Shown: piece by piece, positions 22,305-37,199 of the stretch
Layout: the number at the start of each line of letters is the position of its first letter
How positions within the stretch are numbered: the first letter of the stretch is position 1
Source: Mesorhizobium sp. RMAD-H1
GTDB lineage: Bacteria; Pseudomonadota; Alphaproteobacteria; Rhizobiales; Rhizobiaceae
Direction: 5' to 3'
Length of the DNA: 64,000 nucleotides
NCBI RefSeq assembly: GCF_014191375.1
Contig: NZ_JACHWN010000003.1
Location: forward strand, 310,001 to 374,000
Notes under the pieces: generated by a model
Databases searched by the model: none
What the model saw: only the letters and a program-made list of their open reading frames with translations
What the model was told of the DNA's origin: nothing
Position numbers and translations under genes: made by a program

Positions 22305-23195
22305 TCAGATCGGTTGCATCCGGCGCATGTCGGAAAGCTGACGCTTCATCTGGTGGACGCGGGCCTGATGTTCCGGCGAGCGGCGCATGGCAACGCTGGT
22401 GGAGAGAATGTCAATGACGACGAGTGCCGCGATGCGGGAGATCGTCGGCGTGTACATATTGGTGTTTTCCAGGGTCTCCACGATCAGAGACACGTCGCAA
22501 TAGCTGGTCAGCGGCGAGTCCGAACCGGTGAGGCAGATGACGGTCGCGCCATTGTCGCGCGCGATACGGGCGATCTCGATGATCGAGCGCGTCGTGCCGG
22601 TGTTCGAAATGACGAAAGCCACTTCCCCCGGCTTCATCATCGAGGCGACCATGACCTGCTGGTGGGAATCGAGTTCCGCGGCGCAGGGGATGCCGAAGAG
22701 CGGAAATTTCTGCTGCGCGTCGCGCGCGACGATGCCTGAGGCGCCGAAGCCGAAGAAGACGATCGACCTGGCCGCCGTCAGCACGTCGATTGCCTTGTTG
22801 AGGGCCTGCTTGTCGAGGCGCGAGCGCGCCCAGTCAAGGCTTGTCATCGTATAATCGAAGATCTTCTCGGCAACCGTTTCGGGCTGGTCCGTATCGAGCA
22901 GGACGGAATGGGTCGCGGGCGTGCCGAGCGCCAGGCTCTGGGCGAGGCGGATCTTGAAATCCGGAAAGCCGCTGCAGCCGATCGCGGTCGTGAAGCGCAG
23001 GACGGTCGGCTGGCTCACCTGAGCAAGGGCGGCGGTTTCGCCCACCGTGGCATTGAGGATGCGGCGCGGATCTTCCAGGACGACATCCGCCACCTTGCGG
23101 TCGGACTTGCGCAAATCGGGCCGCATGGTGCGGATGACCTCGATGATGTTCCGCCCACCCTGGTTCCGACTGTCGATGCGCGAATCCGTGTCCAT
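22305..23195 (-). CDS. RpiR/HexR-like transcriptional regulator with SIS domain
   Basis: Regulator of 296 residues: N-terminal RpiR helix-turn-helix (about 10-85, with SDRKVADVVLEDP and VSQPTVLRFTTAIG) and a C-terminal sugar isomerase (SIS) domain (about 120-260, GFGASGIVARDAQQKF, ISNTGTTRSIIEIA). It is close in sequence style to HexR, which senses KDPG and controls Entner-Doudoroff genes. The ATG at 23195 has AAGGAC upstream. It is the last gene of the leftward operon containing KDPG aldolase and cupin phosphoglucose isomerase, and two HexR-like sites lie in the operon's divergent promoter region at 27300-27428. Confidence 0.9.
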   Translation of the reverse strand: MDTDSRIDSRNQGGRNIIEVIRTMRPDLRKSDRKVADVVLEDPRRILNATVGETAALAQVSQPTVLRFTTAIGCSGFPDFKIRLAQSLALGTPATHSVLLDTDQPETVAEKIFDYTMTSLDWARSRLDKQALNKAIDVLTAARSIVFFGFGASGIVARDAQQKFPLFGIPCAAELDSHQQVMVASMMKPGEVAFVISNTGTTRSIIEIARIARDNGATVICLTGSDSPLTSYCDVSLIVETLENTNMYTPTISRIAALVVIDILSTSVAMRRSPEHQARVHQMKRQLSDMRRMQPI

Positions 23196-23218
23196 ATGTT
23201 TGTCCTTCCGGGCGGACT

Positions 23219-24082
23219 CTATGTCAGGGCCCATTCGAAGGCAATTGCCTGCCTTGCGCGGCAGAGGTTGATATCGTTTGCGGATTGCGCCATGGAATCA
23301 ATCAGTTCCGGCTCTATGGTATTGAAATCGAACAGGCCATAATGATGGGCGATCATGCTGGAAGCGCCGATTGCGCGCGTGAGTTCCACCGCCTCGGAAA
23401 GAGTGAGATTGCCGGGAACGCCCTGCGAGGAGAGTTCCGGGCGGCGGCCATTGACCGGCAGCAGCGCGATATCGGGCCGGTGCGGCGATACCTCCTCGAC
23501 CTGTCCGTCGAAAGGGATCGTATCCCCCGAATGCCAGAGCGTCACGTCCGGGCCTTTGATGAGGAAGCCGAGGAAGCGATGATTGCCATGCATATCCCGC
23601 TCGATTGTCTCATGCGCGGCGCGGGTCGGTATCACGCGGAGATCATCCCCGAGGTCGAGAGCCTCTCCGGCATCCACGAAACGGATGCGCGATTCCGGAA
23701 GGCCCGAACGCTCCAGGGCGGCCGCGCGCACCGCGCGAGGCGCGATCAGTGTTGCAGCCGGATTGGCGGCGAAAAGCGCAGGCAGCGTGCCCGGATCCAT
23801 GTGATCCGTATGCGCATGGGTGCAAAGCACATAGTCTACACCGATAAGCTCCGCCGGCTCTATCGGCGGCGGCATCGCCCGCTGATGCGGGTAGCGCGTG
23901 CCGCGATATTTGCTTGCGAGGAAATCGGAAAGATAGGGGTCGATGACGAGACGCCTGCCGGCAATATCGACGACGAAACCCGCCTGGCCGAGCCAGTAGA
24001 AGGTTGGGTTGCTGCCTGGCTTCCCGGCAAGGGCGCCGGCAAGCGCTCCTCCGAATGGTCTTTCGCGAAGCCTGCCTGCCAT
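23219..24082 (-). CDS. UlaG-like MBL-fold metallo-hydrolase
   Basis: Metallo-beta-lactamase-fold protein of 287 residues. The metal motif THAHTDHMD (about 89-97) is intact, with further ligands in GNHRFLGF, LWHSGDT and AHHYGLFDF. The UlaG branch includes L-ascorbate-6-phosphate lactonase, so this could open a sugar-phosphate lactone. The ATG at 24082 (MAGRLRERP) is preferred since a longer start at 24133 would run 38 bp into the upstream gene. It lies in the operon between the 2-hydroxyacid dehydrogenase and the RpiR regulator. Confidence 0.85.
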   Translation of the reverse strand: MAGRLRERPFGGALAGALAGKPGSNPTFYWLGQAGFVVDIAGRRLVIDPYLSDFLASKYRGTRYPHQRAMPPPIEPAELIGVDYVLCTHAHTDHMDPGTLPALFAANPAATLIAPRAVRAAALERSGLPESRIRFVDAGEALDLGDDLRVIPTRAAHETIERDMHGNHRFLGFLIKGPDVTLWHSGDTIPFDGQVEEVSPHRPDIALLPVNGRRPELSSQGVPGNLTLSEAVELTRAIGASSMIAHHYGLFDFNTIEPELIDSMAQSANDINLCRARQAIAFEWALT

Positions 24083-24095
24083 TGTCCGGTTCCCG

Positions 24096-25031
24096 TCAGT
24101 TTTGCAAGGCGGAGAGAAGATTGCGTGCGGCAATGCGCGTGGCCCGATCGACGCTTTCCGCCGTAAAGCCGCCGATATGGCTGGTCGCGATCACCCGCGG
24201 ATGGGCGGCGAGGCGGAGATCGACCGGCGGCTCGGGCTCGAAGACGTCGGTCGCATAGCATCCGATGCGTCCGAGGTCGAGCGCCTCGATCAGCGCATCC
24301 TCATCGACCAGCCGCGCGCGGGCGGTATTGACGAGCACAAGCCCGTTGCGGACCGTCGAAAGCCGCTGGCGATCGAGAAGCGCGGAACCGTCCTTCGGCA
24401 GTGGGCAATGCAGGGAGAGGATCTCAGCGCCGGCGATGATCTCATCGATTTCGCGATACGCGAAGTGCGTGGAGGGCAGGTCGAGGTTGGGCCGGAGCGG
24501 GTCATGGGCGATCACCCTGGCGCCGAGAGCCACGACCATCCGGGCCACCTCGCGGCCGATCGCGCCACAGCCGATGATGCCGACGGTGCGATCACGGATT
24601 TCCATGCCGCGCACCCGCGGCCAGCTGCCGGCCTTGATGCCGGCATCGGCGAGCGGAATGGCGCGCAGCACGCTGAACATAAGACCGATGGTGAGCTCGG
24701 CCACGCCGAGCGCATTGGCGCCCTCCGCGATCATGATCTTTACGCCACGCTTCGCCAGCATGTCGACTGGCAGATTGTCGATGCCGACGCCGTTGCGGCT
24801 GATCACCCTGAGGTTTGCCGCCGCTTCGACGACACGCGGGGTCACCGGCTCGACACCGGCCAGCCAGCCGACGCAACCGGGCACGAGCTCGAGCAACTCG
24901 TCCTCGGTCGGTGTCTGCCCGGCCCTGGAATAGACGATGTCGAAGCCGTTCTCCCGCAGCCGCTCCACATCCGGGTGCGGTTCGGCCGTCAGCGAACGGG
25001 GGGTGACGAGAATTCGGGTGTTGTCATTCAT
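24096..25031 (-). CDS. D-2-hydroxyacid dehydrogenase (phosphoglycerate dehydrogenase-like)
   Basis: NAD-dependent dehydrogenase of 311 residues. The Rossmann motif IIGCGAIGREVARM is at about 144-157; catalytic Arg is in VLVNTARARLVDEDAL (about 230), Glu in DVFEPEPP (about 259) and His in TSHIGGFT (about 283). Relatives reduce or oxidise 2-hydroxy acids such as glycerate, 3-phosphoglycerate or 2-keto sugar acids. The start overlaps the stop of the shikimate-dehydrogenase-like gene by 4 bp. In this operon it may act on a 2-keto or 2-hydroxy sugar acid. Confidence 0.9.
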   Translation of the reverse strand: MNDNTRILVTPRSLTAEPHPDVERLRENGFDIVYSRAGQTPTEDELLELVPGCVGWLAGVEPVTPRVVEAAANLRVISRNGVGIDNLPVDMLAKRGVKIMIAEGANALGVAELTIGLMFSVLRAIPLADAGIKAGSWPRVRGMEIRDRTVGIIGCGAIGREVARMVVALGARVIAHDPLRPNLDLPSTHFAYREIDEIIAGAEILSLHCPLPKDGSALLDRQRLSTVRNGLVLVNTARARLVDEDALIEALDLGRIGCYATDVFEPEPPVDLRLAAHPRVIATSHIGGFTAESVDRATRIAARNLLSALQN

Positions 25032-25981
25032 CGTCCCGCGGCCTCGCGTGCGATATCGGAAATGCGGTCGAGGGGGGGGCCTGAGGTCGGGATGCCGATC
25101 GCGAAGACTTCCGCGATGACCTGCGTCCAGCCATGGATGAAATAGGTCCAGCCGTCCTCGATCTGCAGGAAACGCGTCTTCTCCTGTGCCCGGGCCTGAT
25201 CGAGGAAGACGAGGTCGCCGCGATAGTTGAGGTCCCAGACGACCGCCTTTACCGGAAAGATCGCGGCATTGGAAAGCGGCGAGCCGGGCGCGTCCTTGCC
25301 GAGGCCGGTCGCGTTGATGACGAGCGAGCCGGGCTTGAGGCCGGCGAGCACGGCGTCATTGTCCTCCGGCTGCGGGGCGAGCACATAGTCGACGGGAACA
25401 TCGCTCTCGATACCCGCATGGATACGACGGATCTCGTCGAGCCGGTGCTGGCTGCGGTTGGAGACCACGATACGGCCCGGCACATCCTTGCCCCGCGCAC
25501 GGCGCATCAGATGCCAGGTGATGGCGATCGTCGAGCCGCCGGCACCCATGGAGAAGAGGTCCGCTCCCGTGCGCTCGAAATGGCCATTGCCGAGGAAGCC
25601 GTCGATTGCCAGCCCGGAGGAGATCGGATCCTTGGCGTGGCAGATGAGCTTGCCATCGCGCTTCGAAATGCAGCTGGTCTCGCCCATCAGGGCAGCATGC
25701 GGATCGATGACGTCGAAGAGATCCGAGCAGGCGGCGAAGAGGTCGATCTTGTGCGTGGTGACGAGGGCGCCCATGGAAAGCGGATCGTCGCGGATGAATT
25801 CCACGGCGGCGCGGTAGGCAGCCGGATCGTCATGCAGCTTGAAGTCGATGCCCTTGATCACGGCATCCTTCAGGCCGAGATATTCCGCCCATGCCGGGAA
25901 GACCTTCATGATCGAGCTTTTGCCCGTCGTGACGCCGATGAAATAGAGCGTCGGCTGGCTGGCTGGCTGATAATGCGTCAC
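25028..25981 (-). CDS. atypical shikimate dehydrogenase family protein
   Basis: AroE-fold protein of 317 residues. The catalytic Lys is kept in GALVTTHKIDLF (about 91), and the nucleotide-binding loop is FSMGAGGSTIAITW (about 150). The usual SxSPxxHN motif is replaced by GKSSIMKVFPAW, and the NTD motif region reads AKDPISSG, so shikimate itself is unlikely. It is fused by 4-bp overlaps to KDPG aldolase upstream and the 2-hydroxyacid dehydrogenase downstream, which places it in carbohydrate catabolism. It may oxidise a polyhydroxy acid or cyclic polyol. Confidence 0.85.
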   Translation of the reverse strand: MTHYQPASQPTLYFIGVTTGKSSIMKVFPAWAEYLGLKDAVIKGIDFKLHDDPAAYRAAVEFIRDDPLSMGALVTTHKIDLFAACSDLFDVIDPHAALMGETSCISKRDGKLICHAKDPISSGLAIDGFLGNGHFERTGADLFSMGAGGSTIAITWHLMRRARGKDVPGRIVVSNRSQHRLDEIRRIHAGIESDVPVDYVLAPQPEDNDAVLAGLKPGSLVINATGLGKDAPGSPLSNAAIFPVKAVVWDLNYRGDLVFLDQARAQEKTRFLQIEDGWTYFIHGWTQVIAEVFAIGIPTSGPPLDRISDIAREAAGR

Positions 25982-26631
25982 GCGCGTTTCTCCAGGTGTT
26001 CTTTAGCCGCCTTCACCGCTTCCGCGGCATTGCGGGTGATTTCAGCGAAGCGACCTTCGCGGATGTCTTCCGTCTTGGCGATCCATGTGCCGCCGACGGC
26101 CACCACCTGCTTGACGGCGAGCCAGTCGCCGATGGTGGCCTGGGTTACGCCACCGGTCGGAATGAAACGCACGCCCAGATGGGCGAAAGGGGCCGCGATG
26201 CCGGCGAGCGCCTTCGGTCCGCCCGCGACGCCGGCCGGAAAGAACTTCGCCAGGCGGACACCGCGTGCGGTGGCGAGCGTCAGGTCCGTCGGTGTCATGA
26301 TGCCCGGGCAGAAGGGGAGGCTCGCCGCCCCTGCGGCTTCGACGATCTCCGGATCATAACCCGGCGCCAGCGCGAAGCGGGCGCCACTGTCGATCGCGCG
26401 CTTCAGGCTGCCTCTGTCGAGGATCGTTCCGGCGCCGATGCAGAGCTCCGGCCGCGTATCACGGATGGCGGCCAGGACATCGGCGGCCGCTTCCGTGCGA
26501 AAGGTGATTTCCGCCACGGGAAGGCCGCCTTCAAGAAGCGCATCGGCGAGCGGCACGGCATCCGAGGCGCGCTCGATCGCGATGACAGGCACAACGCCAA
26601 GACCGGCGATGACATCGATGGGGTTTTCCAT
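25978..26631 (-). CDS. eda: 2-dehydro-3-deoxy-phosphogluconate (KDPG) aldolase
   Basis: Class I aldolase of 217 residues that splits KDPG, or a close analogue, to pyruvate and glyceraldehyde-3-phosphate. Conserved features are VAEITFRT (Glu about 40), the phosphate/carboxylate site GAGTILD, the Schiff-base Lys in LAKFFPAGVAGG (about 129) and RFIPTGGVT. The stop overlaps the next gene by 4 bp. Together with a HexR-like regulator and phosphoglucose isomerase in the same operon, it points to an Entner-Doudoroff type route. Specificity for KDPG versus KDPGal cannot be read from sequence. Confidence 0.93.
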   Translation of the reverse strand: MENPIDVIAGLGVVPVIAIERASDAVPLADALLEGGLPVAEITFRTEAAADVLAAIRDTRPELCIGAGTILDRGSLKRAIDSGARFALAPGYDPEIVEAAGAASLPFCPGIMTPTDLTLATARGVRLAKFFPAGVAGGPKALAGIAAPFAHLGVRFIPTGGVTQATIGDWLAVKQVVAVGGTWIAKTEDIREGRFAEITRNAAEAVKAAKEHLEKRA

Positions 26632-26661
26632 GATTTCTACTCCTTCCGGTTCTGCGCCGGC

Positions 26662-27285
26662 TCATGCATATCGTTTCATCAGCGCAGCGACCGTGTCGCT
26701 GCTGCGGGGGCGGTAATCCCGGTTCTCGACGAGAATCCAGCCGCCATTGCCATCTGTCTTCACGCGGTGGCGCATGCCGTTAGACGCTTCGATGATGCCG
26801 TAGTCCTGACCGCTGTCGGAGGGATAGGCGAAGAGCATCACGAGATCCTCGTCGCCGACATTGATGGAACGGTGGATCCAATAGGGCGGCACGTAGCAGA
26901 TCGACTGCGGGCCTATCTCCACGATGCGAGTTTCGCCTTCCGGCGATTCGAGCTGCATCAGGCCTTTGCCCTTCTGGCCGTAATAAATCTCAGGCCGGTC
27001 GGCCTTCGCATGGATGTGCCCGCGGGTGAGGAAGAACTCGTCGCCGATCCGCCCAGGGCTCATGCGCGTGATGCCATAGATCAGGTCCCCGGCGTGATCA
27101 CCCGGCCGGAAGTCCTCAACCGCGTAGACGACCGGGTCCCCGAGCTTTTGCGTCAATTGCGCATGCGCGGCCGCGTTTTCGTAAAGACCCGAGAGGTCAC
27201 TCAGCCGCTTCTCGTAACGTCCCGTATTGCCGCTCATGCCGCCGCTGTTTGCGTCGACGATGCTTGTGACCGGTTCTCTCAACAT
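26662..27285 (-). CDS. cupin-type glucose-6-phosphate isomerase
   Basis: Cupin-fold phosphoglucose isomerase of 207 residues, a metal-dependent enzyme type first known from archaea and also reported from Ensifer and Salmonella. The metal motif GHIHAKADRPEIYYG (His about 94 and 96, Glu about 101) and the later His in PPYWIHRSINVG match the family. It interconverts glucose-6-phosphate and fructose-6-phosphate. RBS GGAGG is well placed before the ATG at 27285. It is the first gene of the leftward operon and sits directly after a promoter overlapped by a HexR-like site. Confidence 0.92.
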   Translation of the reverse strand: MLREPVTSIVDANSGGMSGNTGRYEKRLSDLSGLYENAAAHAQLTQKLGDPVVYAVEDFRPGDHAGDLIYGITRMSPGRIGDEFFLTRGHIHAKADRPEIYYGQKGKGLMQLESPEGETRIVEIGPQSICYVPPYWIHRSINVGDEDLVMLFAYPSDSGQDYGIIEASNGMRHRVKTDGNGGWILVENRDYRPRSSDTVAALMKRYA

Positions 27286-27299
27286 GCCTACCTCCGTTT

Positions 27300-27314
27300 G
27301 GTAGTAAAATTACA
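27300..27314. promoter_or_regulatory. HexR-like operator 1
   Basis: GGTAGTAAAATTACA matches 14 of 15 positions of the HexR consensus TGTARTWWWAYTACA known from gammaproteobacteria. It overlaps the -10 box of a leftward promoter for the isomerase operon. The local RpiR/HexR-like regulator (22305-23195) is the likely binder. Confidence 0.65.
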
Positions 27315-27339
27315 TAAATTATTGCTATTAGACCTGCAA
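27311..27339 (-). promoter_or_regulatory. predicted promoter of leftward catabolic operon
   Basis: On the minus strand TTGCAG (27339-27334), a 17-nt spacer and TATGTA (27316-27311) form a sigma-70-type promoter upstream of the cupin isomerase start at 27285. HexR-like operator 1 overlaps its -10 box, which fits repression. Confidence 0.5.
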
Positions 27340-27413
27340 GTACAAAATTTCGCTTGTTTGCAGTTCAAAATCACGCCGTTGTGCCAAAAATTTATGTTGA
27401 CGATGAAAAAATT

Positions 27414-27428
27414 GGTAACTACGCTACA
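27414..27428. promoter_or_regulatory. HexR-like operator 2
   Basis: GGTAACTACGCTACA matches 11 of 15 positions of the HexR consensus and keeps both outer GTA/TAC half-sites. It lies 54 bp before the rightward binding-protein gene and 12 nt downstream of a TTGACG box (27397-27402). The 114-bp centre-to-centre distance from operator 1 would allow joint control of both operons. Confidence 0.45.
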
Positions 27429-27481
27429 TAAAGCCAAGAGGAAATGGCTCGCGATGGAACGCGCTCACCGGAGGAGAAATC

Positions 27482-28462
27482 ATGACCCGCAAGAAGAACA
27501 CCGTCCTCAAAATCGCCTTGGCTGCCGCCGCATCGCTGCTTGCGATCGGCTCGGCGCAGGCCGCCGACTGCAAGATCGGCATTTCCATGAAAACGCTCGA
27601 TGCGCCTTATTTCGCCGCGCAGGAAGTCGCCGCGAAGAAGCACGCCGAGGAACTCGGCTGCGAGGTGATCACGGCTGATGCGCAGAACGACCTCAACAAG
27701 CAGATCGCCGATGTCGAGGACATGGTCGCGCAGGGGATCGGCGCGCTGATCATCAATCCGCGCGACAGCAAGGGCATGGTTCCGGCGGTCAATGCCGCCA
27801 CGGCCGCGGGCGTCAAGGTGTTCGTGATCGACTCCACGCTCGATCCGGCCGCGAATTTCGTGACGCTGGTCCAGTCCTCCAACAGCCGAAACGGCATGCT
27901 CGTCGGCCAGTGGTTGGCCGATCAGATGAAGGGCAAGGATTTGAAGATCGCGCTTCTGTCTGGCGACAAGGGCAATGAAGTCGGCCAGGAGCGTCGCCTG
28001 GGCGTGCTTGCGGGCCTGATCGAAGGCCAGCTCAGGAACGAAGGCCGCGCGCGGGTGGAGATCGTCGGCCAGGGCTGGGGCCTGTGGGGCCATGAGGGTG
28101 GCCTGAAGGCCATGGAAGACCTGTTGGTCGCCAACCCGGATATCAATGTCGTGCTCGGCGAGAACGATTCCATGGTGCTCGGCGCGAAAAAGGCGCTTGA
28201 ACAGGCCGGTCGTCTCGACGGCGTGCTTCTGGTCGCCGCCGCCGACGGGCAGAAGGAAGCGCTCGAGATGATCAAGGAAGGCGGCTACGGCGCGACCGGT
28301 CTCAACGATCCGGCGCTCGTCGCCTCCACCGCGGTCGATCTCGCCAAGAAGGCGCTCGATGGCGCTCTGCCGGCCGACACGCCGAAGATCACCTATACGA
28401 CGCCGGTGGCGATCACCAAGGGCAATGTCGATCAGTACTACAAGCCTGACGCGGTATTCTGA
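27482..28462 (+). CDS. ribose-type ABC sugar/polyol-binding protein
   Basis: Periplasmic binding protein of 326 residues with a Sec signal peptide (about 1-28, cleavage after AQA). It belongs to the ribose-type periplasmic-binding-protein 4 family (QIADVEDMVAQGIGALIINPRD, GENDSMVLGAKKALEQ). RBS GGAGGAG. It is the first gene of an eight-gene rightward operon with ATPase, permease, FGGY kinase, HAD phosphatase, two SDRs and a GldA-like dehydrogenase. Ligand class: monosaccharide or polyol; identity unknown. Confidence 0.93.
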   Translation: MTRKKNTVLKIALAAAASLLAIGSAQAADCKIGISMKTLDAPYFAAQEVAAKKHAEELGCEVITADAQNDLNKQIADVEDMVAQGIGALIINPRDSKGMVPAVNAATAAGVKVFVIDSTLDPAANFVTLVQSSNSRNGMLVGQWLADQMKGKDLKIALLSGDKGNEVGQERRLGVLAGLIEGQLRNEGRARVEIVGQGWGLWGHEGGLKAMEDLLVANPDINVVLGENDSMVLGAKKALEQAGRLDGVLLVAAADGQKEALEMIKEGGYGATGLNDPALVASTAVDLAKKALDGALPADTPKITYTTPVAITKGNVDQYYKPDAVF

Positions 28463-28481
28463 CCGCTTGTCCTCCCGAAGT

Positions 28482-28511
28482 CGCCGACGGGTCCTTTGCG
28501 GCCCGCCGGCG
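28482..28511 (+). terminator. hairpin after binding-protein gene
   Basis: Inverted repeat CGCCGACGGG / CCCGCCGGCG (9 of 10 pairs) with a 10-nt loop, 20 nt after the binding-protein stop and 37 nt before the ATPase. No U-run. Probably a 3' stabiliser or attenuator. Confidence 0.45.
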
Positions 28512-28547
28512 GCAATCGACACCTGATCTCGAAGAAGCAATCGCGCA

Positions 28548-30055
<1,508 letters not shown>

Positions 30056-30056
<1 letters not shown>

Positions 30057-31039
30057 TGAGTACCGCCATGACAGACGTTACCGAAACTGCCCGCCCGTCG
30101 CTGAACATCAGCCAGATCCTGCAGCGCTATGGTACGCTAGCGATCCTCGTGGCGCTCGTCATCGTGGCGGCCAGCATGTCGGATGTGTTCCTGACGGAGC
30201 GCAACATCCTCAACGTGCTGCGCCAGATCTCCGGCACCAGCCTCATGGCGATCGGCATGCTCTTCGTCATCCTGACGCGCGGCATTGACCTCTCGGTCGG
30301 CTCCGTCGCGGCGCTCGGCAGCGTGCTTTCGGCGATCCTCATCCAGCAATACGGGCCGGGTCTCTCCATCGCGGCGACCCTTCTCGCGGGTGCCGGGTGC
30401 GGCCTGGTGTCCGGTGTGCTCGTCGCATTCCTGAAACTGCCGCCCTTCGTGACGACCCTTGCCATGATGACCGTGGCGCGCGGCCTTTCGCTGATCATCT
30501 CCGCGGGCCAGCCGATCGTCATGGGCGACGGAGGTGCTTTGATTACCGCGTTCGGTTCAGGCTCCTTCGCGGGCATTCCCTATCCCGTCATCCTGATGGC
30601 CATTGTCTTCCTCATCGCCGGGACGGTCCTGATGTTCACCCGCTATGGCCGTCTGGTGAAGGCGATCGGTTCGAATGTCGAGGCCGTGCGGCTCTCGGGC
30701 ATCCCGGTCGCCTGGTACACGATGTCGGTTTATGTGATTTCCGGTGTGCTTGCCGCCGCTGCCGGCATCGTTTCGGCAAGCCGCACCGGCGTCGGCTCGG
30801 CCAATATCGGCGTGGGCGCCGAACTCGATGCGATCGCGGCCGTCGTGATCGGTGGCGCGAGCCTGATGGGTGGTCGTGGCGGCGCCTTCAATACCTTTAT
30901 TGGGGTGATCGTCCTTGGCATCATCGCAAACATGATGAATCTCGCCCGCGTGCCCGGCTATCACCAGCAGGTCTTCATGGGTTGCATCATCATCGGCGCC
31001 ATGCTCCTGCAATACGCATCCAACTGGCTGCGCCGCTAA
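30056..31039 (+). CDS. ribose-type ABC importer permease
   Basis: RbsC-family permease of 327 residues with about eight to ten membrane segments and the conserved ILTRGIDLSVGSVAALGSV and AIGSNVEAVRLSGIPVAWY motifs. It is the sole permease gene and probably works as a homodimer, unlike the two-permease importer at 12475-14369. A short rhizobial-type repeat follows the stop, then the kinase gene. Confidence 0.94.
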
Positions 31040-31040
31040 G

Positions 31041-31083
31041 GCATGCTCCCGAAAAGTTGCAGGCTTTTCGGATAAGGGCATGC
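31041..31083. repeat. short rhizobial palindromic repeat
   Basis: Nested inverted repeat: outer GCATG (31041-31045) and CATGC (31079-31083), inner CCGAAAAG (31049-31056) and CTTTTCGG (31064-31071). I recall closely similar GCATG-CCGAAAAGT-CTTTTCGG-CATGC units as frequent intergenic repeats in rhizobial genomes. It lies inside the operon between the permease and kinase genes and may fold in the mRNA. Confidence 0.55.
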
Positions 31084-31165
31084 GGTTAAAACAATGGCCC
31101 GAAGGCGCGGCATGTCGGCCCGGACATGCGACCGGGCCATGGAGGAGGCGGAGCAGGGGGTAACG

Positions 31166-32668
31166 ATGTCCGAGGAGCTGTTTCTCACCATCGATGTCGG
31201 CACAGGCAGCGTGCGCGCTGCGCTCGTCGACAGGCGCGGCAAGGTACTCGCAATCAGCCTACGCGAGCACGAGCAGATCGTGCCGCAGTTCGGCTGGTCC
31301 GAGCAGCGGCCGGCCGACTGGTGGAGCGGGGTGGTCGCCGCGATCCGCGACGTGCTGGCAAAGGAGCCGGATGCGTGCGGGCGCATCTCCGCCGTCGCCG
31401 CCTGTGGCCAGATGCATGGCACCGTGCTTGTCGACGATCGCGGAAATCTCGCGCGCGATACGGCGCCGCTCTGGAACGACAAGCGCACCGTCGCCCATGT
31501 GAAGGCGTTCGAAAAGGCGCACCGGCCCGAAACCTATCTTGCCGACAGCGCCAATCCGGCAGCGCCGGCCTGGCCGGGCTTCAAGCTGCAATGGCTGCGC
31601 GACATGGACCCCGGGGCCTGGCGCAGGGCGGCGGCGGTCCTCATGCCGAAGGACTGGATCAATCTCAAGCTCACCGGTGAAATCGCCATGGACCGCACCG
31701 AGGGCGGCGCAAGCTTCCTGATGGATCCGCGTACCGGCGAATGGTCCGACCGGATGATCGGCCTTCTTGGTCTCGACAAGGCGAAGCTTGCGCCGCTGCG
31801 CAATCCCGTCGAGATACTCGGTCATGTCAATGCTGCGGCTGCCCGGGAGACGGGCCTGCGCGAAGGCACGCCCGTGCTCGTCGGCGGCGGTGACTATCCC
31901 ATGGCGCTGCTCGGTTCCGGTGTCTGCCGGCCGGGCATCGGTTCGGAGGTGATGGGCACATCGGCCATCATCACGGCAATTGCGGAAAAGCCGCTGCTCG
32001 ATGCGGCCGTTTCCAATGTCGGTACGGTGGAAGGCAATTGGGGCGCCTTCATGCTGCTTGAATCCGGCGGCGACGCCATGCGCTGGGCGCGGCGCGCCTT
32101 CCATGAGAAGCAGGTGAGCTACGAAGAGATCGTGGCCAAGGCGGCCGAGGCGCCGGCGGGCAGCGACCGGCTTTTCTTCATGCCCTATCTCGCCGGCGAG
32201 CGGCTTGGCGACCACCGCAATGCGCGCGCCCAGTTCTTCGGCATCGGTGCAGCGCACGGGCTCGCCCATATGCACCGGGCGGTGCTGGAAGGCGTGGCCT
32301 TTGCGGTGAAGCGCCACATCGACATCCTCGACCGTATTTCCGGGACGCCGCTGCAGCGGGTGATCGCATCGGGCGGCGGGGCGAAGACGAAGCTCTGGAT
32401 GAAGATCAAGGCCAGCGTCTACGGCATTCCGATCCTCGTTCCTGCCGAAGCCGAATGCGGCATTGTCGGCTGCGCGGCGATGGCGGCAGCGGCGACCGGG
32501 CTCTACTCCACCGTCGAGGATGCGGCGGAAACCTATGTAACCTATGCGGAGGAGATCATGCCCGATCCGGCCTGGGCCGAAGTCTACCGGCCGATGCAGG
32601 CCGTTTTCGAGAAACTCTATTTCCATAGCCAGTCGCTTTATGACGATCTGGACCGGTTGCCGTCATGA
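31166..32668 (+). CDS. FGGY-family carbohydrate kinase (xylulokinase-like)
   Basis: Sugar kinase of 500 residues. The N-terminal actin-like ATPase motif is LTIDVGTGSVRAALVD (about 6-21), with QMHGTVLVDDRGN and LWNDKR as in xylulokinases, and the C-terminal ATPase domain carries GGGDYPMALLGSG and ASGGGAKTKLWMKIKA. I chose the ATG at 31166 (GCAGGGGG upstream) over an ATG at 31094. FGGY kinases phosphorylate ketoses, polyols or sugar acids. The stop overlaps the HAD gene by 4 bp. It probably phosphorylates the imported sugar or the ketose made by the SDR enzymes. Confidence 0.92.
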   Translation: MSEELFLTIDVGTGSVRAALVDRRGKVLAISLREHEQIVPQFGWSEQRPADWWSGVVAAIRDVLAKEPDACGRISAVAACGQMHGTVLVDDRGNLARDTAPLWNDKRTVAHVKAFEKAHRPETYLADSANPAAPAWPGFKLQWLRDMDPGAWRRAAAVLMPKDWINLKLTGEIAMDRTEGGASFLMDPRTGEWSDRMIGLLGLDKAKLAPLRNPVEILGHVNAAAARETGLREGTPVLVGGGDYPMALLGSGVCRPGIGSEVMGTSAIITAIAEKPLLDAAVSNVGTVEGNWGAFMLLESGGDAMRWARRAFHEKQVSYEEIVAKAAEAPAGSDRLFFMPYLAGERLGDHRNARAQFFGIGAAHGLAHMHRAVLEGVAFAVKRHIDILDRISGTPLQRVIASGGGAKTKLWMKIKASVYGIPILVPAEAECGIVGCAAMAAAATGLYSTVEDAAETYVTYAEEIMPDPAWAEVYRPMQAVFEKLYFHSQSLYDDLDRLPS

Positions 32669-33348
32669 GCCGCAAAGCCGTTCTCTTCGATATGGACGGA
32701 ACACTGGTCGACAGCGAAGTCCTGCATTTCGAGACGCTGGCGGCTGCGGTGGAAAGCTTCGGCTACGCAGTACCCGACGGCTATGCCGAACGCGTTACAG
32801 GCAGGACGATCGGCGACTGCCACGCCTTGCTGGCAGAGATGGTCGGTTTCGCACTGCCACTCGACGACTTTGTGGCGCGGAAATACGCCCTCTATATCGA
32901 AAGGGCAGGGAGCCTGCGGACGCGGGAGGGCGCGCAAGCGGTGCTGGCGCTCATCCGCTCTTCCGGTGCGGCCATGGCCATCGTCTCGAATTCGGACCGG
33001 ATGCTGGCCGATGCCAATCTCACCGCCGTTGGCCTGCAGACGCCCGGCCTCGTCAGTGTGACGCGCAACGACGTGCGTATGGGCAAACCCCATCCCGAGC
33101 CCTATCTGCGCGCCGCCTGGCTGCTTGGCGTCGAGCCTTCCGACTGCATTGTCGTGGAAGACAGCGCGCCCGGCGCCAGCGCCGGTCTTGCCGCCGGCAT
33201 GACGGTGATCGGCTGGCCGGAGCCGCATCGCCCCGACATCGTCTTTCCCGCCGGAACGGTCATTGCCGATCCGCACGATCTCGTCGCAACGCTCCGGCCG
33301 CTTTTCTCCACTTCGCTCGAAACAGTTCCCGTTCCAAGGATCGCCTGA
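32665..33348 (+). CDS. HAD-superfamily sugar phosphatase/phosphoglucomutase-like
   Basis: HAD hydrolase of 227 residues. Motif I is LFDMDGTLVDSE (about 7-18), motif II lies in VSNSDRM, the Lys of motif III in RMGKPHPEPYL and the acidic motif IV in IVVEDSAPGASAG. This is the beta-phosphoglucomutase/2-deoxyglucose-6-phosphatase branch. It is coupled to the kinase by a 4-bp overlap and may remove a dead-end phosphosugar or act on a pathway intermediate. Confidence 0.9.
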   Translation: MSRKAVLFDMDGTLVDSEVLHFETLAAAVESFGYAVPDGYAERVTGRTIGDCHALLAEMVGFALPLDDFVARKYALYIERAGSLRTREGAQAVLALIRSSGAAMAIVSNSDRMLADANLTAVGLQTPGLVSVTRNDVRMGKPHPEPYLRAAWLLGVEPSDCIVVEDSAPGASAGLAAGMTVIGWPEPHRPDIVFPAGTVIADPHDLVATLRPLFSTSLETVPVPRIA

Positions 33349-33349
33349 C

Positions 33350-34123
33350 ATGTATCTCGACAAGTTCAAGCTCACCGGCAAAATCGCCGTCATCACGGGC
33401 GCCGCGCGCGGCATCGGCCTCTCGACCGCCGAGGCGCTTGCCGAAGCCGGCGCGACTGTCGTGCTCACCGACATGAACCCGGATCTGCTTGCCGCCGCGA
33501 CCGAGGGCCTGAAGGCGAAGGGCTACGACGTCGACAGCGAAGTGCTCGACGTGACGGATGTGAAGGCCGTGCAGGCGGTGCACGACGCGATCCTCGCCCG
33601 CCATGGCAGGGTTGACGTACTGGTCAACAATGCCGGCATCGCCATCTCCAACCATCCGGCCGAGACGATGGCCGACGAGGTGTGGAACAAGGTGATCGAT
33701 GTCAATCTCAACGGCGTCTTCTGGTGCTGCCGTGCGTTCGGCAACACGATGCTGAAGCAGGGCGCCGGCTCGATCGTCAATGTGGGTTCGATGTCGGGCT
33801 TCATCGTCAACCGACCGCAGGAGCAGGCCAACTACAACGCCTCGAAAGCCGCTGTCCATCACCTGACGAAGTCGCTTGCCGCCGAATGGGGTGCACGCGG
33901 CGTGCGCGTCAATTCGGTCGCGCCGACCTATATCGACACCGAGATGAACAAATATGTCTATGAGGACGAGGAGATGTACCGCCACTGGGTCGGCGGCACG
34001 CCGATGAACCGGCTTGGCCGCACCGACGAGGTGGCCTCGGTCATCCTGTTCCTGGCGAGCGATGCCGCAAGCCTGATGACCGGTTCCATCGTGCTGGCCG
34101 ATGGAGGCTACGTATGCTGGTGA
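33350..34123 (+). CDS. short-chain dehydrogenase/reductase (sugar or polyol)
   Basis: Classical SDR of 257 residues: cofactor motif TGAARGIG (about 15-22), an Asp after strand 2 (LTDMN) favouring NAD, NNAG at about 92-95, catalytic Ser in VGSMSG (about 144) and YNASK at about 160-164. The start at 33350 places the ATG across the end of the HAD gene stop. It ends 10 bp inside the GldA-like gene. Similar SDRs in sugar operons oxidise polyols to ketoses. Confidence 0.92.
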   Translation: MYLDKFKLTGKIAVITGAARGIGLSTAEALAEAGATVVLTDMNPDLLAAATEGLKAKGYDVDSEVLDVTDVKAVQAVHDAILARHGRVDVLVNNAGIAISNHPAETMADEVWNKVIDVNLNGVFWCCRAFGNTMLKQGAGSIVNVGSMSGFIVNRPQEQANYNASKAAVHHLTKSLAAEWGARGVRVNSVAPTYIDTEMNKYVYEDEEMYRHWVGGTPMNRLGRTDEVASVILFLASDAASLMTGSIVLADGGYVCW

Positions 34124-35205
34124 AGGCGGATCAGGCAGGCACGGTCCGCGGCGCGCGCTTCCCCGGCCGTTATATCCAGGGGCCCGGCGTTATCGCGCGG
34201 CTCGGCGCCGAGGCGAAGGCTTTCGGCGACAAGGCGATCGTTCTGCTCGACAATGGCATTTTTGATCTGCTGAAGGCCGATATTGAAGCCGCCTTCGCAG
34301 AAGGACCGGCGGTCGAGATCGTCCGCCATGGCGGCGAGTGTTCGGAAATAGCGATTGGATCTCTCGCTGATGCCGCAAAAGCGGCGGGCGCTTCGGTCAT
34401 CATCGGGGCAGGGGGCGGCAAGGCGCTCGATACCGCGAAGGCGGCGGCGCGTGACGTCTCGCTTCCAGTCATCGTCTTTCCCACCATCGCCGCATCCGAT
34501 GCGCCCTGCAGCGCGCTGGCGGTGGTCTATAATGAAGACGGGACAGTCGCCTACGACACGTTCCTTGCGCGCAATCCCGATCTGGTGCTGGTCGACACCG
34601 CGCTGATCGCCAGGGCTCCGGCGCGTTTCCTGGCGGCGGGCATTGGTGACGCCCTTGCCACCTGGTACGAGGCGGACTCCTGCCGCCAAAGCGGTGCCTT
34701 CAACTGCATGAAGATGCCGGGCGTGCCGCTCGCCTATGAAATCGCCCGCTTCTGCCGCGACACGATTTTCGCGTTCGGCGCGGCCGCCTTGCAGGAATGC
34801 GACGCAAAGAGCGCCGGGCCGGCGCTCGAGCGCGTCGTCGAAGCCAACATTCTTTTGTCGGGCATCGGCTTCGAATCCGGCGGTGTCGCAGCCGCCCACG
34901 CCATCCATCACGGGCTGTGCGAACTCGACGACGTGCACCATCACCTGCATGGCGAGAAGGTGGCGATCGGCGTGCTCGCAGGGCTGAAGCTGCATGGGCT
35001 CACGGAAGAATATGAGCGCGTGCGGCGGTTCTGCCTTTCCGTCCGCCTGCCGACGAAGCTTGCCGATATCGGCATCGCTGAAGTGACGCCGGAGAAGCTT
35101 GCGACTGTTGCGAAGCGCGCCTGCCGGGCGGGCGAGATCATCCACAACGAGCCCATCCCGGTGACCGAGGCGATGGTCATCAAGGCGCTCGAAGCATTGG
35201 TTTGA
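34114..35205 (+). CDS. GldA-like iron/zinc-dependent alcohol dehydrogenase
   Basis: Glycerol-dehydrogenase-family protein of 363 residues. The N-terminal NAD domain has GAGGGKALDTAKA (about 90-102); metal ligands of the family are visible in GIGDALATWYEAD (Asp about 172), AAHAIHHGL (His about 255) and HHLHGEKVAIG (His about 272). It overlaps the preceding SDR by 10 bp and the following SDR by a few bases, so all are tightly coupled. It probably oxidises a polyol or hydroxyketone in the pathway; glycerol itself is only one option. Confidence 0.9.
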   Translation: MLVKADQAGTVRGARFPGRYIQGPGVIARLGAEAKAFGDKAIVLLDNGIFDLLKADIEAAFAEGPAVEIVRHGGECSEIAIGSLADAAKAAGASVIIGAGGGKALDTAKAAARDVSLPVIVFPTIAASDAPCSALAVVYNEDGTVAYDTFLARNPDLVLVDTALIARAPARFLAAGIGDALATWYEADSCRQSGAFNCMKMPGVPLAYEIARFCRDTIFAFGAAALQECDAKSAGPALERVVEANILLSGIGFESGGVAAAHAIHHGLCELDDVHHHLHGEKVAIGVLAGLKLHGLTEEYERVRRFCLSVRLPTKLADIGIAEVTPEKLATVAKRACRAGEIIHNEPIPVTEAMVIKALEALV

Positions 35206-35222
35206 GAATGGAGGAGAAGGAA

Positions 35223-35960
35223 GTGGAAGCATTCAAGCCCGGACTGTTCTCCGGCAACAGGGTCGTCGTCTCCGGCGGCACGAGCGGCATAGGTCTTTCG
35301 CTCGCCAAGGGTTTTGCCGAGGCCGGTGCGATGGTGATCGCCACCGGCAGTTCCGAAAGCCGGCTTGCCGCCGCAAGGGCCGAAGGCGTGGATGGCCTCT
35401 TGTTCCAGCGTCTCGATGTCCGCGACAAGGCGTCGGTCAACGCCTTCTTCTCCGGCCTTGAACGGCTCGACGTTCTGGTAAACTGCCAGGGCGTGGCGCG
35501 ACCCGGTGCCGAATGGGAGGAGGAAACCTTCATGGATGTCATGGACATCAACCTCTCCAGCGCCATGCGGTTATCGCGCGAGGCTTTCCCGCTGTTGAAG
35601 GAAGCCAAGGGCAGCATCCTCAACGTCGCCTCGATGCTGAGCTATCTGGCGGATGAGACGGTGCCAGCCTACACGGCCAGCAAGACGGGCATCCTCGGCC
35701 TCACCCGCGCTCTTGCGCATAAATATGGGCGGGACGGGGTTCGCGTGAACGCAATCGCGCCGGGCTATCACCGCACCGACATGACGAAGCCGCTCTGGTC
35801 GGTTCCCGAGAGCGAAAGGATAATCAGCGACCGCTCGGCCCTGAAACGGTGGGGAACGACGGAAGATCTTGTCGGTCCGGTGCTTTTCCTGGCGTCTCCG
35901 GCGGCTGCATTCGTGACCGGCATAACCCTGCCGGTCGATGGCGGCTATCACGTCGGATAG
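35223..35960 (+). CDS. short-chain dehydrogenase/reductase
   Basis: Second SDR of the operon, 245 residues from a GTG start at 35223 that has GGAGAAGGAA directly upstream; an ATG at 35208 is the alternative. Cofactor motif SGGTSGIG near the N-terminus, NCQG in place of NNAG, catalytic Ser in VASMLS and YTASK. The residue after strand 2 (TGSSES) suggests NADP. It is the last gene of the rightward operon. Its use with the first SDR suggests an oxidation-reduction pair that epimerises or isomerises a sugar. Confidence 0.88.
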   Translation: MEAFKPGLFSGNRVVVSGGTSGIGLSLAKGFAEAGAMVIATGSSESRLAAARAEGVDGLLFQRLDVRDKASVNAFFSGLERLDVLVNCQGVARPGAEWEEETFMDVMDINLSSAMRLSREAFPLLKEAKGSILNVASMLSYLADETVPAYTASKTGILGLTRALAHKYGRDGVRVNAIAPGYHRTDMTKPLWSVPESERIISDRSALKRWGTTEDLVGPVLFLASPAAAFVTGITLPVDGGYHVG

Positions 35961-35972
35961 GAGACCGGATCC

Positions 35973-37199
35973 TCAGAGGCTTCGGCCATTGGAGACGAGG
36001 CGCAGGGTTTCCTTGCCTCGGCTCGGTACCACGACGAGCTGCTTGACCTTGCCCTGCTTGAAGGCTTTCAGGAACCGGTCATAGTCCTTGAACGCGACGC
36101 AGCCATGGGACTGCGCCTCCCGGCCGCGCAGCAGATAGCTGTGGGTCAGGAAGCCGTCGCGGCCATATTTGTTCTTGCCGTCCACGGGCAGCATGCGGAT
36201 GGCCTCCACGCCGTGGAAGCGCTTTTCGCGCATCCTGAGATTATAGGTATGGGGCGGGGTGGGTCCGTTCATCTTGACGTGGACATAACGCGGGTCGTCC
36301 GCCATCTTGCCGATGCCGGAATGGGCCTCGAGCACGCTGCCGTCGGGCATATAGACCTTTGCCGCGCTGATATCGTAGACGGCAACGCCGTTTCCCGGCT
36401 TGGGATCACCGCCACCGAACAGATCGCGCAGCGTCTTGCCAAAGCCGCCGCCTCTCGCCTTTTCGGCGGGGTTGTCCGGCCGCGCATAGGCAAGCATCTG
36501 CGGCTTCGAGGCCTCGCGTTCGGGGACGGTCTTCGGCAGCGGCGGCTTTTCCGTCGACTGCACGGCGGATTGCGCCATTTCCTCGGCGAGCCGGCGGCCT
36601 TCCGCACCACGCGGGCGAAGCTGCGGCAGGGGAATGTCTGACTGATCGCCGTCGAAACCTGGAAGGGCCGCCACATTCTCACCCTCGCCTTCGTCCTCTG
36701 CGGCGGCGGACTGCTCCTCCAGCGAGGCGGCCAGCCAGGCCGAGAGAGCGGCACTGGCCGCCGCGCCGGGAACGGGGTTGGCATAGGCCAGCAGGGTCTG
36801 CGGCTGGCCGGCGGTGCCAGCGGTCCGTGGCCCGAACCGGTCCGGAACAGGCTTGCCGATCTCCGCCGCCATGCGCTGTGGCTTTGAATTATCGGGCAGG
36901 CGGGTGGATTTGCCGTCAGCGACGGTCATGACCGCAGAGGCGGCTTCCAGGGCGGCTATGAACTTCAGCGCCCTGTCCTTCATCGTCTGCTGGTCGAGAG
37001 GTTGTGCGTCCCTTCTCTCTACTGCATGGAGCTTCGGCTTGGGCAAAAAGGGTTCCGGGCCATAGGTGAGAGAGCCGGTCATCGCGGCCATGCTGATCAT
37101 CGACCACACGACCCCGCCGGCAAAAGCGGTACCGAAAGAAGCAATGAGCAGCGGGCGCAGGAAACTGCGCAGGGACTTTTTACGAACGGTTTTACTCAC
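35973..37199 (-). CDS. DUF2778 (Tlde1-like) envelope protein
   Basis: Protein of 408 residues with one N-terminal membrane anchor (about 12-38, LRPLLIASFGTAFAGGVVWSMIS), a long low-complexity linker rich in Pro, Ala and charged residues (about 55-260), and a C-terminal DUF2778 domain. The end holds HSYLLRGREAQSHGCVAFKDYDRFLKAF, whose His and Ser-His-Gly-Cys resemble L,D-transpeptidase active sites. I prefer a GTG at 37199 (MSKTVRKKSLRSF) to a longer ATG at 37313. The domain is likely periplasmic and could modify peptidoglycan. It is convergent with the catabolic operon. Confidence 0.78.
   Translation of the reverse strand: MSKTVRKKSLRSFLRPLLIASFGTAFAGGVVWSMISMAAMTGSLTYGPEPFLPKPKLHAVERRDAQPLDQQTMKDRALKFIAALEAASAVMTVADGKSTRLPDNSKPQRMAAEIGKPVPDRFGPRTAGTAGQPQTLLAYANPVPGAAASAALSAWLAASLEEQSAAAEDEGEGENVAALPGFDGDQSDIPLPQLRPRGAEGRRLAEEMAQSAVQSTEKPPLPKTVPEREASKPQMLAYARPDNPAEKARGGGFGKTLRDLFGGGDPKPGNGVAVYDISAAKVYMPDGSVLEAHSGIGKMADDPRYVHVKMNGPTPPHTYNLRMREKRFHGVEAIRMLPVDGKNKYGRDGFLTHSYLLRGREAQSHGCVAFKDYDRFLKAFKQGKVKQLVVVPSRGKETLRLVSNGRSL

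What the first reader, a model, noticed from the sequence alone, without database searches (positions are those of the whole stretch)
22305..35960. Uncharacterised sugar/polyol regulon with a HexR-like regulator, cupin PGI, KDPG aldolase and an unusual enzyme set
Thirteen or more genes in two divergent operons share one promoter region: importer, FGGY kinase, HAD phosphatase, two SDRs, GldA-like dehydrogenase on one side; cupin isomerase, KDPG aldolase, an atypical AroE paralogue, a 2-hydroxyacid dehydrogenase, an UlaG-like hydrolase and an RpiR/HexR-like regulator on the other. This set does not match any named pathway I know. The PGI and KDPG aldolase imply that the route ends in hexose phosphate and Entner-Doudoroff intermediates, while the extra dehydrogenases and lactonase suggest a rarer starting substrate (rare hexose, hexitol or polyhydroxy acid). 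The substrate is inferred, not known.
Basis: partly seen in the sequence, partly recalled or inferred. Interest (0 to 1): 0.85.

Follow-up and report, generated by a model that had tools for sequence, protein, structure and literature searches.

The report
Rhizobial polyol regulon with AroE-like dehydrogenase
Fourteen neighbouring genes, apparently switched by one local regulator through two matching DNA sites, look like a pathway that imports a rare sugar alcohol and breaks it down by an unstudied sequence of enzymes, one of them an unrecognised cousin of an enzyme of aromatic amino acid synthesis.

Summary
In detail: 14 open genes in two divergent operons around a 196-bp promoter region. Comparison indicates one regulon. 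A 15-bp palindrome (GTA-N7-TAC) occurs in 38 of 39 distinct cupin/importer promoter regions (73 sites; shuffles average 0.8). Its strict form occurs at three places in the genome, two of them here. In four related genomes the regulon is split over two loci, and both carry the site. The cupin 'glucose-6-phosphate isomerase' and the AroE-like protein are near-obligate partners: all 20 AroE-like genomes among 397 have the cupin, one doubtfully. Downstream genes drop out in order (MBL hydrolase, then 2-hydroxyacid dehydrogenase or GlcD-like flavoenzyme, then KDPG-type aldolase), as in a linear pathway. Best reading: polyol, ketose, ketose-P, aldose-P, lactone-P, aldonate-P, 2-keto acid-P, aldolase products. 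The substrate is probably a hexitol; the binding protein is 68% identical to Verminephrobacter protein 4RY9 (its D-talitol ligand is recalled, not confirmed). Ten searches of the held library gave no study of function. Reactions and substrate are inferred.

The parts
22305..23234 (-). RpiR-family regulator (HTH_6 + SIS), HexR-like
   Evidence: in 62 of 66 loci with at least 8 kb on both sides
23219..24133 (-). MBL-fold hydrolase, distantly UlaG-like; probable start 24082
   Evidence: metal motif THxHxDH conserved; 58 of 66 loci
24096..25031 (-). D-2-hydroxyacid dehydrogenase, PGDH/PdxB-like
   Evidence: 46 of 66 loci
25028..25981 (-). AroE-like dehydrogenase of unassigned function, probably NADP-dependent
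25978..26631 (-). KDPG-type aldolase
   Evidence: 38 of 66 loci, each of them with the 2-hydroxyacid dehydrogenase
26662..27285 (-). cupin-type phosphoglucose-isomerase-like protein
27300..27314 (.). operator-like palindrome GGTAGTAAAATTACA ahead of the cupin gene
27414..27428 (.). operator-like palindrome GGTAACTACGCTACA ahead of the importer operon
27482..28462 (+). CUT2 solute-binding protein, 204 of 301 aligned columns identical to PDB 4RY9 (VEIS_2079)
28548..30056 (+). CUT2 importer ATPase
30056..31039 (+). CUT2 importer permease
31094..32668 (+). FGGY kinase, XylB-like below cut-off (336 against 380 bits); probable start 31166
32665..33348 (+). HAD-family phosphatase
33350..34123 (+). 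SDR polyol dehydrogenase (nearest solved: 3awd putative polyol DH, 2wdz galactitol DH)
34114..35205 (+). GldA-like dehydrogenase
35202..35960 (+). second SDR

Best explanation
A dedicated catabolic regulon for a rare hexitol or the ketohexose made from it. The CUT2 importer takes up the polyol. The polyol dehydrogenases (SDR1, perhaps GldA and SDR2) oxidise it to a ketose, and the FGGY kinase makes a ketose phosphate. The cupin isomerase converts this to an aldose phosphate. The AroE-like enzyme oxidises that with NADP to a phospho-lactone. The MBL hydrolase opens it to a phospho-aldonate. The PGDH/PdxB-like enzyme oxidises C2 to a 2-keto phospho-acid, and the KDPG-type aldolase cleaves it to C3 products. 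The RpiR protein controls both operons from the two palindromes. Shown by sequence and comparison: gene content, cupin/AroE-like pairing, nested dropout order, shared palindromes. Inferred: every reaction, the substrate (a hexitol such as D-altritol = D-talitol is the leading guess), that the palindrome is this regulator's site, the effector, and whether the regulator represses.
For: Pairing: all 20 AroE-like genomes are among the 21 of 397 with the cupin (hypergeometric 8.8e-33 by genome, 2e-13 by genus, uncorrected for kinship), also where the genes are unlinked (G074, G145, G174, G222). Nested dropout in 66 loci with at least 8 kb on both sides: Eda implies HADH 38 of 38; HADH implies MBL 45 of 46; GlcD-like implies MBL 13 of 13; HADH and GlcD-like mostly replace each other, 3 loci having both. 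Polyol entry: SDR1 and CUT2 SBP together in 32 of 66 loci, SDR1 alone in 1; SDR1 nearest to polyol/galactitol dehydrogenases; GatD-like dehydrogenase + FGGY3 together in 8 of 80 loci, all with the CUT2 SBP. SBP groups with 4RY9. Palindromes. A differently ordered operon at 56% AroE identity keeps most of the set. AroE fold by Foldseek; catalytic Lys and Asp align with canonical AroE and are invariant in 20 rows.
Against: No biochemistry. I know of no AroE-family enzyme that oxidises an anomeric hydroxyl. If C3 carries a hydroxyl, the aldolase would have to release hydroxypyruvate rather than pyruvate, not its usual product. Three loci carry HxlA/HxlB-like genes beside the core, two of them without MBL, which a lactonase route does not predict. 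Eight of 66 loci lack MBL by my threshold, 10 of 66 have neither HADH nor GlcD-like. The cupin has Gln where archaeal cupin PGI has His158 (95 of 96 bacterial rows). The palindrome is absent ahead of the cupin in 22 of 56 loci without an adjacent CUT2 SBP, among them all 9 Burkholderiales loci, and one of 39 cupin/SBP regions has none. The nesting partly reflects shared ancestry, not corrected for. The ligand of 4RY9 is recalled only.
Confidence: 0.45

Rival explanations
1. Carbon-carbon hydrolase route: the AroE-like enzyme makes a beta-dicarbonyl sugar phosphate and the MBL protein cleaves a C-C bond (as proposed for IolN in inositol breakdown, recalled), giving small hydroxy acids such as glycolate or phosphoglycerate that the PGDH-like or GlcD-like enzyme oxidises.
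For: The interchangeable enzymes are PGDH-like and GlcD-like, both below the cut-offs of those models. HxlA/HxlB-like genes, whose family cleaves beta-keto sugar phosphates, sit beside the core in 3 of 66 loci. AroE enzymes oxidise secondary ring alcohols.
Against: It gives the KDPG-type aldolase no clear role. The MBL protein's weak named matches (PRK00685 hydrolase, UlaG lactonase, SaxA isothiocyanate hydrolase) do not point to C-C cleavage.
Confidence: 0.2
2. Redox isomerisation route: a polyol is oxidised, the AroE-like enzyme works as a ketose reductase (as 5-ketofructose reductase does), and the product enters normal metabolism as fructose 6-phosphate and glucose 6-phosphate through the cupin isomerase.
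For: The model matches 5-ketofructose reductase 7cok/7col about as well as shikimate dehydrogenases. The cupin matches archaeal cupin PGIs with all four metal ligands conserved.
Against: It gives the MBL, 2-hydroxyacid dehydrogenase and aldolase genes no role, yet these drop out in order after AroE-like. The genome already has PGI, Edd and Eda.
Confidence: 0.17
3. Deoxy-sugar route: the ketose is a 3-deoxy-hexulose (for example from 3-deoxyglucosone), so the same steps give KDPG itself and every enzyme acts in its textbook role without a dehydratase.
For: No dehydratase in the cluster; the aldolase keeps the residues I recall as catalytic, with Ser to Thr in the phosphate loop (alignment); DeoC with a second FGGY kinase joins in 8 of 66 loci.
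Against: Four loci carry a gene of one cluster whose three scanned members match D-psicose 3-epimerase best, below its cut-off; such an enzyme needs a C3 hydroxyl. The importer's relative binds a normal hexitol (recalled).
Confidence: 0.1
4. A known hexitol pathway (for example the D-altritol pathway of Agrobacterium tumefaciens C58) with extra paralogues.
For: Shared substrate suggestion; FGGY kinases and SDRs are common in such clusters.
Against: From recall, the published route uses tagatose 6-phosphate epimerisation and no AroE-like, cupin, MBL or aldolase genes of this kind. The paper is not held here, so it was not compared.
Confidence: 0.05

Closest known systems
Cupin-type phosphoglucose isomerase (Pyrococcus/Thermococcus; PF06560)
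   Same: Metal ligands H88, H90, E97, H136 conserved; the two signature motifs, recalled from the literature, can be read in the window protein
   Different: His158 replaced by Gln in 95 of 96 bacterial rows, also in the S. meliloti pSymB copy; near-obligate partner is an AroE-like protein; a separate classical PGI is encoded
Shikimate dehydrogenase AroE / 5-ketofructose reductase fold
   Same: Fold, glycine-rich loop, NR motif of the NADP type (recalled), catalytic Lys and Asp
   Different: At most 20% identity in the 50 structure matches shown; no Pfam hit; far below the shikimate dehydrogenase cut-offs; shikimate-binding Gln position is Gly; genome has its own AroE
Entner-Doudoroff pathway with HexR
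   Same: Isomerase, dehydrogenase, possible lactonase, KDPG-type aldolase, HexR-like regulator
   Different: No glucose-6-phosphate dehydrogenase and no Edd in the cluster; 2-hydroxyacid dehydrogenase instead; regulator below the HexR cut-off with an operator-like site almost confined to this promoter
D-altritol/galactitol pathways of A. tumefaciens C58 (Wichelecki 2015, seen only as a reference in PMC12193009)
   Same: SBP-led hexitol uptake, polyol dehydrogenase, sugar kinase (recalled)
   Different: No AroE-like, cupin, MBL or KDPG-aldolase steps (recalled, not compared)

Membership tests
Cupin PGI | Four metal ligands (His, His, Glu, His) | tested here: met
   Invariant in 96 bacterial rows aligned to P. 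furiosus PGI, some genomes counted twice
Cupin PGI | His158 of the archaeal enzyme | tested here: not met
   Gln in 95 of 96 bacterial rows including the window; whether this residue is required was not tested
Cupin PGI | Glucose-6-P/fructose-6-P isomerase activity | not testable with these tools
   A S. meliloti pgi mutant had no PGI activity above background although pgiA1 and pgiA2 are in the genome (PMC10433430, section 16 read); whether these were expressed is not known
Shikimate dehydrogenase AroE | Catalytic Lys and Asp | tested here: met
   K78 and D118 align with the Lys and Asp of canonical AroE of the same genome and are invariant in 20 rows
Shikimate dehydrogenase AroE | Score over a curated shikimate dehydrogenase cut-off | tested here: not met
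   40.6 bits or less against cut-offs of 200 to 432
Shikimate dehydrogenase AroE | Shikimate-binding residues (N-terminal Ser motif, C-terminal Gln) | tested here: not met
   Gln position is Gly284; the N-terminal motif lies outside that alignment and is judged by eye
HexR | Score over NF008451 cut-off | tested here: not met
   282.2 against 296 bits
HexR | KDPG as effector | not testable with these tools
   none
KDPG aldolase | Over TIGR01182 cut-off | tested here: met
   212.5 against 156 bits; aligns with solved KDPG aldolases
UlaG (ascorbate-6-P lactonase) | Over NF008688 cut-off | tested here: not met
   37.4 against 306 bits
D-talitol/D-altritol binding protein (4RY9 clade) | Same clade as 4RY9 | tested here: met
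   4RY9 groups with 8 Burkholderiaceae cluster SBPs (99/100) inside a 28-row group that holds the window (97/94); 57 rows
D-talitol/D-altritol binding protein (4RY9 clade) | Binds D-talitol | not tested
   The ligand of 4RY9 is recalled; the title shown is cut before any ligand

The most novel reading that the evidence does not exclude
A new Entner-Doudoroff-like route for a rare hexitol in which an AroE-family enzyme takes the place of glucose-6-phosphate dehydrogenase and a 2-hydroxyacid oxidation takes the place of the dehydratase, present in at least 576 sequenced relatives whose genes, where annotation was seen, are labelled shikimate dehydrogenase, glucose-6-phosphate isomerase and phosphoglycerate dehydrogenase.
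Probability: 0.35. Interest if true: 0.75.

Novelty: new variant of a known kind. Interest (0 to 1): 0.58.

Why it matters
If right, it adds a widespread sugar pathway, gives a function to a large AroE-like family that the annotated records seen here label shikimate dehydrogenase, and explains why rhizobia such as S. meliloti carry archaeal-type phosphoglucose isomerase genes beside a classical one. It makes testable predictions: a regulon, its operator, its regulator and a short list of substrates.

Tried and rejected
Rejected: that the cupin, aldolase and AroE-like protein are the genome's housekeeping copies (searches find separate AroE, Edd, PGI and Eda). Disfavoured: a global HexR regulon (strict palindrome at only 3 places in 5.14 Mb; the third lies inside an open reading frame). 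The palindrome was drawn by eye from the window and the shared words, so the count is not blind. The loci with other arrangements (34 of 56 without an adjacent CUT2 SBP carry GTA-N7-TAC within 350 bp of the cupin gene, 30 of 52 when identical stretches are counted once) and the split regulon were not used to draw it. Misses there include all 9 Burkholderiales loci and loci where the cupin is not the first gene. As controls within the clusters, the 350 bp ahead of AroE-like, HADH and MBL genes hold it in 0 of 94, 0 of 64 and 0 of 82. A sigma-70 scan of the promoter region found nothing.

Led nowhere: the single-sequence model of the binding protein was poor (pLDDT 43.7), so one search was used only for entry titles. 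No genome of the 398 sampled around G422 had a match to 4RY9 above 76%, so the 4RY9 gene's own neighbourhood was not seen. The chromosome of S. meliloti 1021 was not searched, so the identity of SMc02042 to SMc02045 with this cluster is inferred from strains Ak57 and 4H41 and gene names in papers. My gene calling produced some spurious reverse-strand frames; the counts used tblastn with identity thresholds set by me.

Counts: the 80 named loci are the best of at least 576 and lean towards close relatives; 66 had at least 8 kb on both sides; some appear to be the same genomes as. G039's cupin is doubtful (44%, one stop inside, another contig).
Full report
What is there. The window holds 14 open genes in two divergent operons around a 196-bp promoter region. 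Minus strand, from the promoter: cupin PGI-like, KDPG-type aldolase (Eda), AroE-like, D-2-hydroxyacid dehydrogenase (HADH), MBL hydrolase, RpiR regulator. Plus strand: solute-binding protein (SBP), ATPase, permease, FGGY kinase, HAD, SDR1, GldA, SDR2. Among the NCBIfam matches shown, only the aldolase, GldA (glycerol dehydrogenase subfamily), SDR1 (two general subfamilies) and the HAD (general HAD-IA models) pass a curated cut-off (the lists for the ATPase, HAD and SDRs were cut at 25). In annotated records the same genes are labelled shikimate dehydrogenase, glucose-6-phosphate isomerase, phosphoglycerate dehydrogenase and MBL-fold hydrolase.

These are not housekeeping copies. The genome has its own AroE (231 bits), Edd (1058 bits), classical PGI (668 bits) and a higher-scoring Eda, all on other contigs.

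The AroE-like protein. It has no Pfam family and weak aroE scores. The model (pLDDT 81.9) matches shikimate dehydrogenases and 5-ketofructose reductase (target-normalised TM 0.65-0.78, at most 20% identity in the 50 shown). Aligned with the genome's own AroE, the catalytic Lys (K78) and Asp (D118), the glycine-rich loop and the NR motif are kept, while the C-terminal Gln that binds shikimate (role recalled) is Gly284. K78 and D118 are invariant in 20 rows. So it is probably an active dehydrogenase with a different substrate. A scan of bacterial and archaeal genomes found at least 576 relatives; the best 80 became named loci, by their titles mostly alpha- and betaproteobacteria.

The cupin and the AroE-like protein are near-obligate partners. 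Of 397 genomes of the order, 20 have the AroE-like protein and 21 the cupin; all 20 are among the 21 (hypergeometric 8.8e-33; by genus 9 of 142 within 10 of 142, 2e-13; neither corrected for kinship). One of the 20 (G039) is doubtful. In G074, G145, G174 and G222 the two genes lie in different places, so linkage alone does not explain the pairing. In 66 named loci with at least 8 kb on both sides the cupin is present in all. The cupin keeps the four metal ligands of archaeal cupin PGI but has Gln in place of His158 in 95 of 96 bacterial rows. The cupin can occur without the AroE-like protein: in G346 (42% identity), and on S. meliloti 1021 pSymB, where no AroE-like match was found on that plasmid.

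Downstream genes drop out in order. In the same 66 loci: MBL 58, HADH 46, GlcD-like flavoenzyme 13, Eda 38. Eda occurs only with HADH (38 of 38), HADH almost only with MBL (45 of 46), GlcD-like only with MBL (13 of 13). HADH and the GlcD-like enzyme mostly replace each other (3 both, 43 HADH alone, 10 GlcD-like alone, 10 neither; p = 1.5e-4). This is what a linear pathway AroE-like, MBL, 2-hydroxyacid oxidation, aldolase would give. FAD enzymes of the GlcD kind run as oxidases or dehydrogenases (recalled), so the step is probably an oxidation; the GlcD-like proteins are below the glcD cut-off. Shared ancestry contributes and was not corrected for.

Entry of the substrate. SDR1 goes with the CUT2 SBP (32 both, 1 SDR1 alone, 6 SBP alone, 27 neither; p = 2e-11), and of 14 loci with a CUT1 importer 2 have SDR1. 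SDR1's nearest solved relatives are a putative polyol dehydrogenase and galactitol dehydrogenase. In 8 of 80 loci a GatD-like dehydrogenase and a third FGGY kinase occur together, always with the CUT2 SBP; a ninth has the GatD-like gene alone. That pair could phosphorylate the polyol first and then oxidise it. Both entries would converge on a ketose phosphate, the natural substrate for a PGI-like cupin. In 7 of 80 loci, all with the CUT1 ATPase, there is a DkgA-like reductase, and 4 CUT1 loci carry one cluster of xylose-isomerase-like proteins whose three scanned members match D-psicose 3-epimerase best, below its cut-off; these point to a ketohexose. The SBP is 68% identical to 4RY9, VEIS_2079 of Verminephrobacter, which falls inside the tree of cluster SBPs next to those of Burkholderiaceae clusters. 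I recall that 4RY9 was solved with D-talitol; the title shown is cut before any ligand and no held paper names the entry. D-talitol is D-altritol (PMC12193009, passages read); there galactitol dehydrogenase gave 11% D-psicose and 3.2% D-tagatose from it. So D-altritol and D-psicose are the leading guesses, no more.

One regulon. The pattern GTA-N7-TAC, consensus TGTAGTTTAACTACA, occurs in 38 of 39 distinct intergenic regions between the cupin and SBP genes, at least twice in 32 of 39; 73 sites in all against a mean of 0.8 and a maximum of 4 in 300 sets of dinucleotide shuffles. The window has one site 15-29 bp ahead of the cupin start and one 54-68 bp ahead of the SBP start. In the 5.14-Mb genome the strict form occurs at three places, two of them here, against 48 for the reversed pattern; the third lies inside an open frame. 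Within 350 bp ahead of the cupin gene it is in 34 of 56 loci with other arrangements, though in none of 9 Burkholderiales loci; ahead of AroE-like, HADH and MBL genes it is in 0 of 94, 0 of 64 and 0 of 82. In G074, G145, G174 and G222 the AroE-like locus with the RpiR gene and the separate cupin-importer locus without it both carry the site. The S. meliloti 1021 pSymB locus (cupin, importer, GatD-like, FGGY3, no RpiR match) also has two sites. The palindrome is therefore most likely the operator of the cluster's RpiR protein; binding is not shown.

Independent arrangement. A Shinella zoogloeoides plasmid has a 56% AroE-like relative in a differently ordered operon that still holds an FGGY kinase (26% to the window's), cupin (39%), HADH (49%), MBL (57%), Eda (46%), HAD, SDRs, GldA and an RpiR gene (29%).

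Mechanism and limits. The most economical reading is polyol, ketose, ketose-P, aldose-P, lactone-P, aldonate-P, 2-keto-aldonate-P, aldolase products. HADH scores best with phosphoglycerate dehydrogenase and also matches 4-phosphoerythronate dehydrogenase, both below cut-off; both act on C2 of phospho-hydroxy acids. The weak point is the last step: with a C3 hydroxyl the aldolase would release hydroxypyruvate. A 3-deoxy sugar would remove this problem and give KDPG itself, but the ketose-3-epimerase-like genes speak against it. A C-C hydrolase role for MBL is the main rival, helped by HxlA/HxlB-like genes in 3 Mesorhizobium loci, 2 of them without MBL.

What is known. S. meliloti 1021 has pgiA1 (SMc02042) and pgiA2 (SMb20857) besides pgi; a pgi mutant had no PGI activity above background (PMC10433430, section 16 and passages read). 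Passages elsewhere mention neighbouring locus tags only in expression results or tables: SMb20855, SMc02031, SMc02035 and SMc02037 (PMC12542648), SMc02045 and SMc02031 (PMC2848018), pgiA1 (PMC10315480), and SMb20854-SMb20856 in a BLAST table of transporters compared with myo-inositol importers (PMC2597717). PMC5729237 was seen only as a listing with SMc02032. I found no functional study of this cluster in the held library (searches named in the summary). A 2005 report of cupin PGI activity from Ensifer meliloti is recalled, not read, and would favour true PGI activity.

Verdict. A real, coherent, widely distributed and apparently unstudied regulon: a known kind of thing (SBP-kinase-dehydrogenase sugar regulon) with an unusual core. 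Exact chemistry is open.

Noticed in passing
35973-37313 (-): 446-aa protein with a Tlde1 domain (PF10908, 9e-29), convergent with the end of the plus-strand operon.
   Followed up: no
20248-22197 (-): GGDEF + EAL protein directly downstream of the regulator gene.
   Followed up: no
L172-L175 and L034, L032, L036, L037 (G222, G174, G145, G074): Regulon split over two distant loci, both with the same palindrome, only one with an RpiR match.
   Followed up: yes
L133 (S. meliloti 1021 pSymB 1245000-1280000): Cupin and CUT2 importer locus with two operator-like sites but no RpiR match nearby, a likely trans target.
   Followed up: partly
L118, L126, L128 (Mesorhizobium): HxlA-like and HxlB-like genes with a CUT1 importer divergent from cupin-AroE (scanned in L118 and L128).
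   Followed up: partly
L072, L073, L074, L076, L081, L083, L089, L092 and others: DeoC and a second FGGY kinase join the cluster in 8 of 66 loci, always together (loci from the gene clusters).
   Followed up: partly
L082: Record titled Mycobacterium sp. KBS0706 carries a binding protein that sits among those of Inquilinus limosus, perhaps a mislabelled or mixed assembly.
   Followed up: no
L168 (Shinella zoogloeoides plasmid): Another gene annotated shikimate dehydrogenase, two annotated sugar phosphate isomerase/epimerases and an inositol-monophosphatase-family gene lie near the divergent version of the operon.
   Followed up: no
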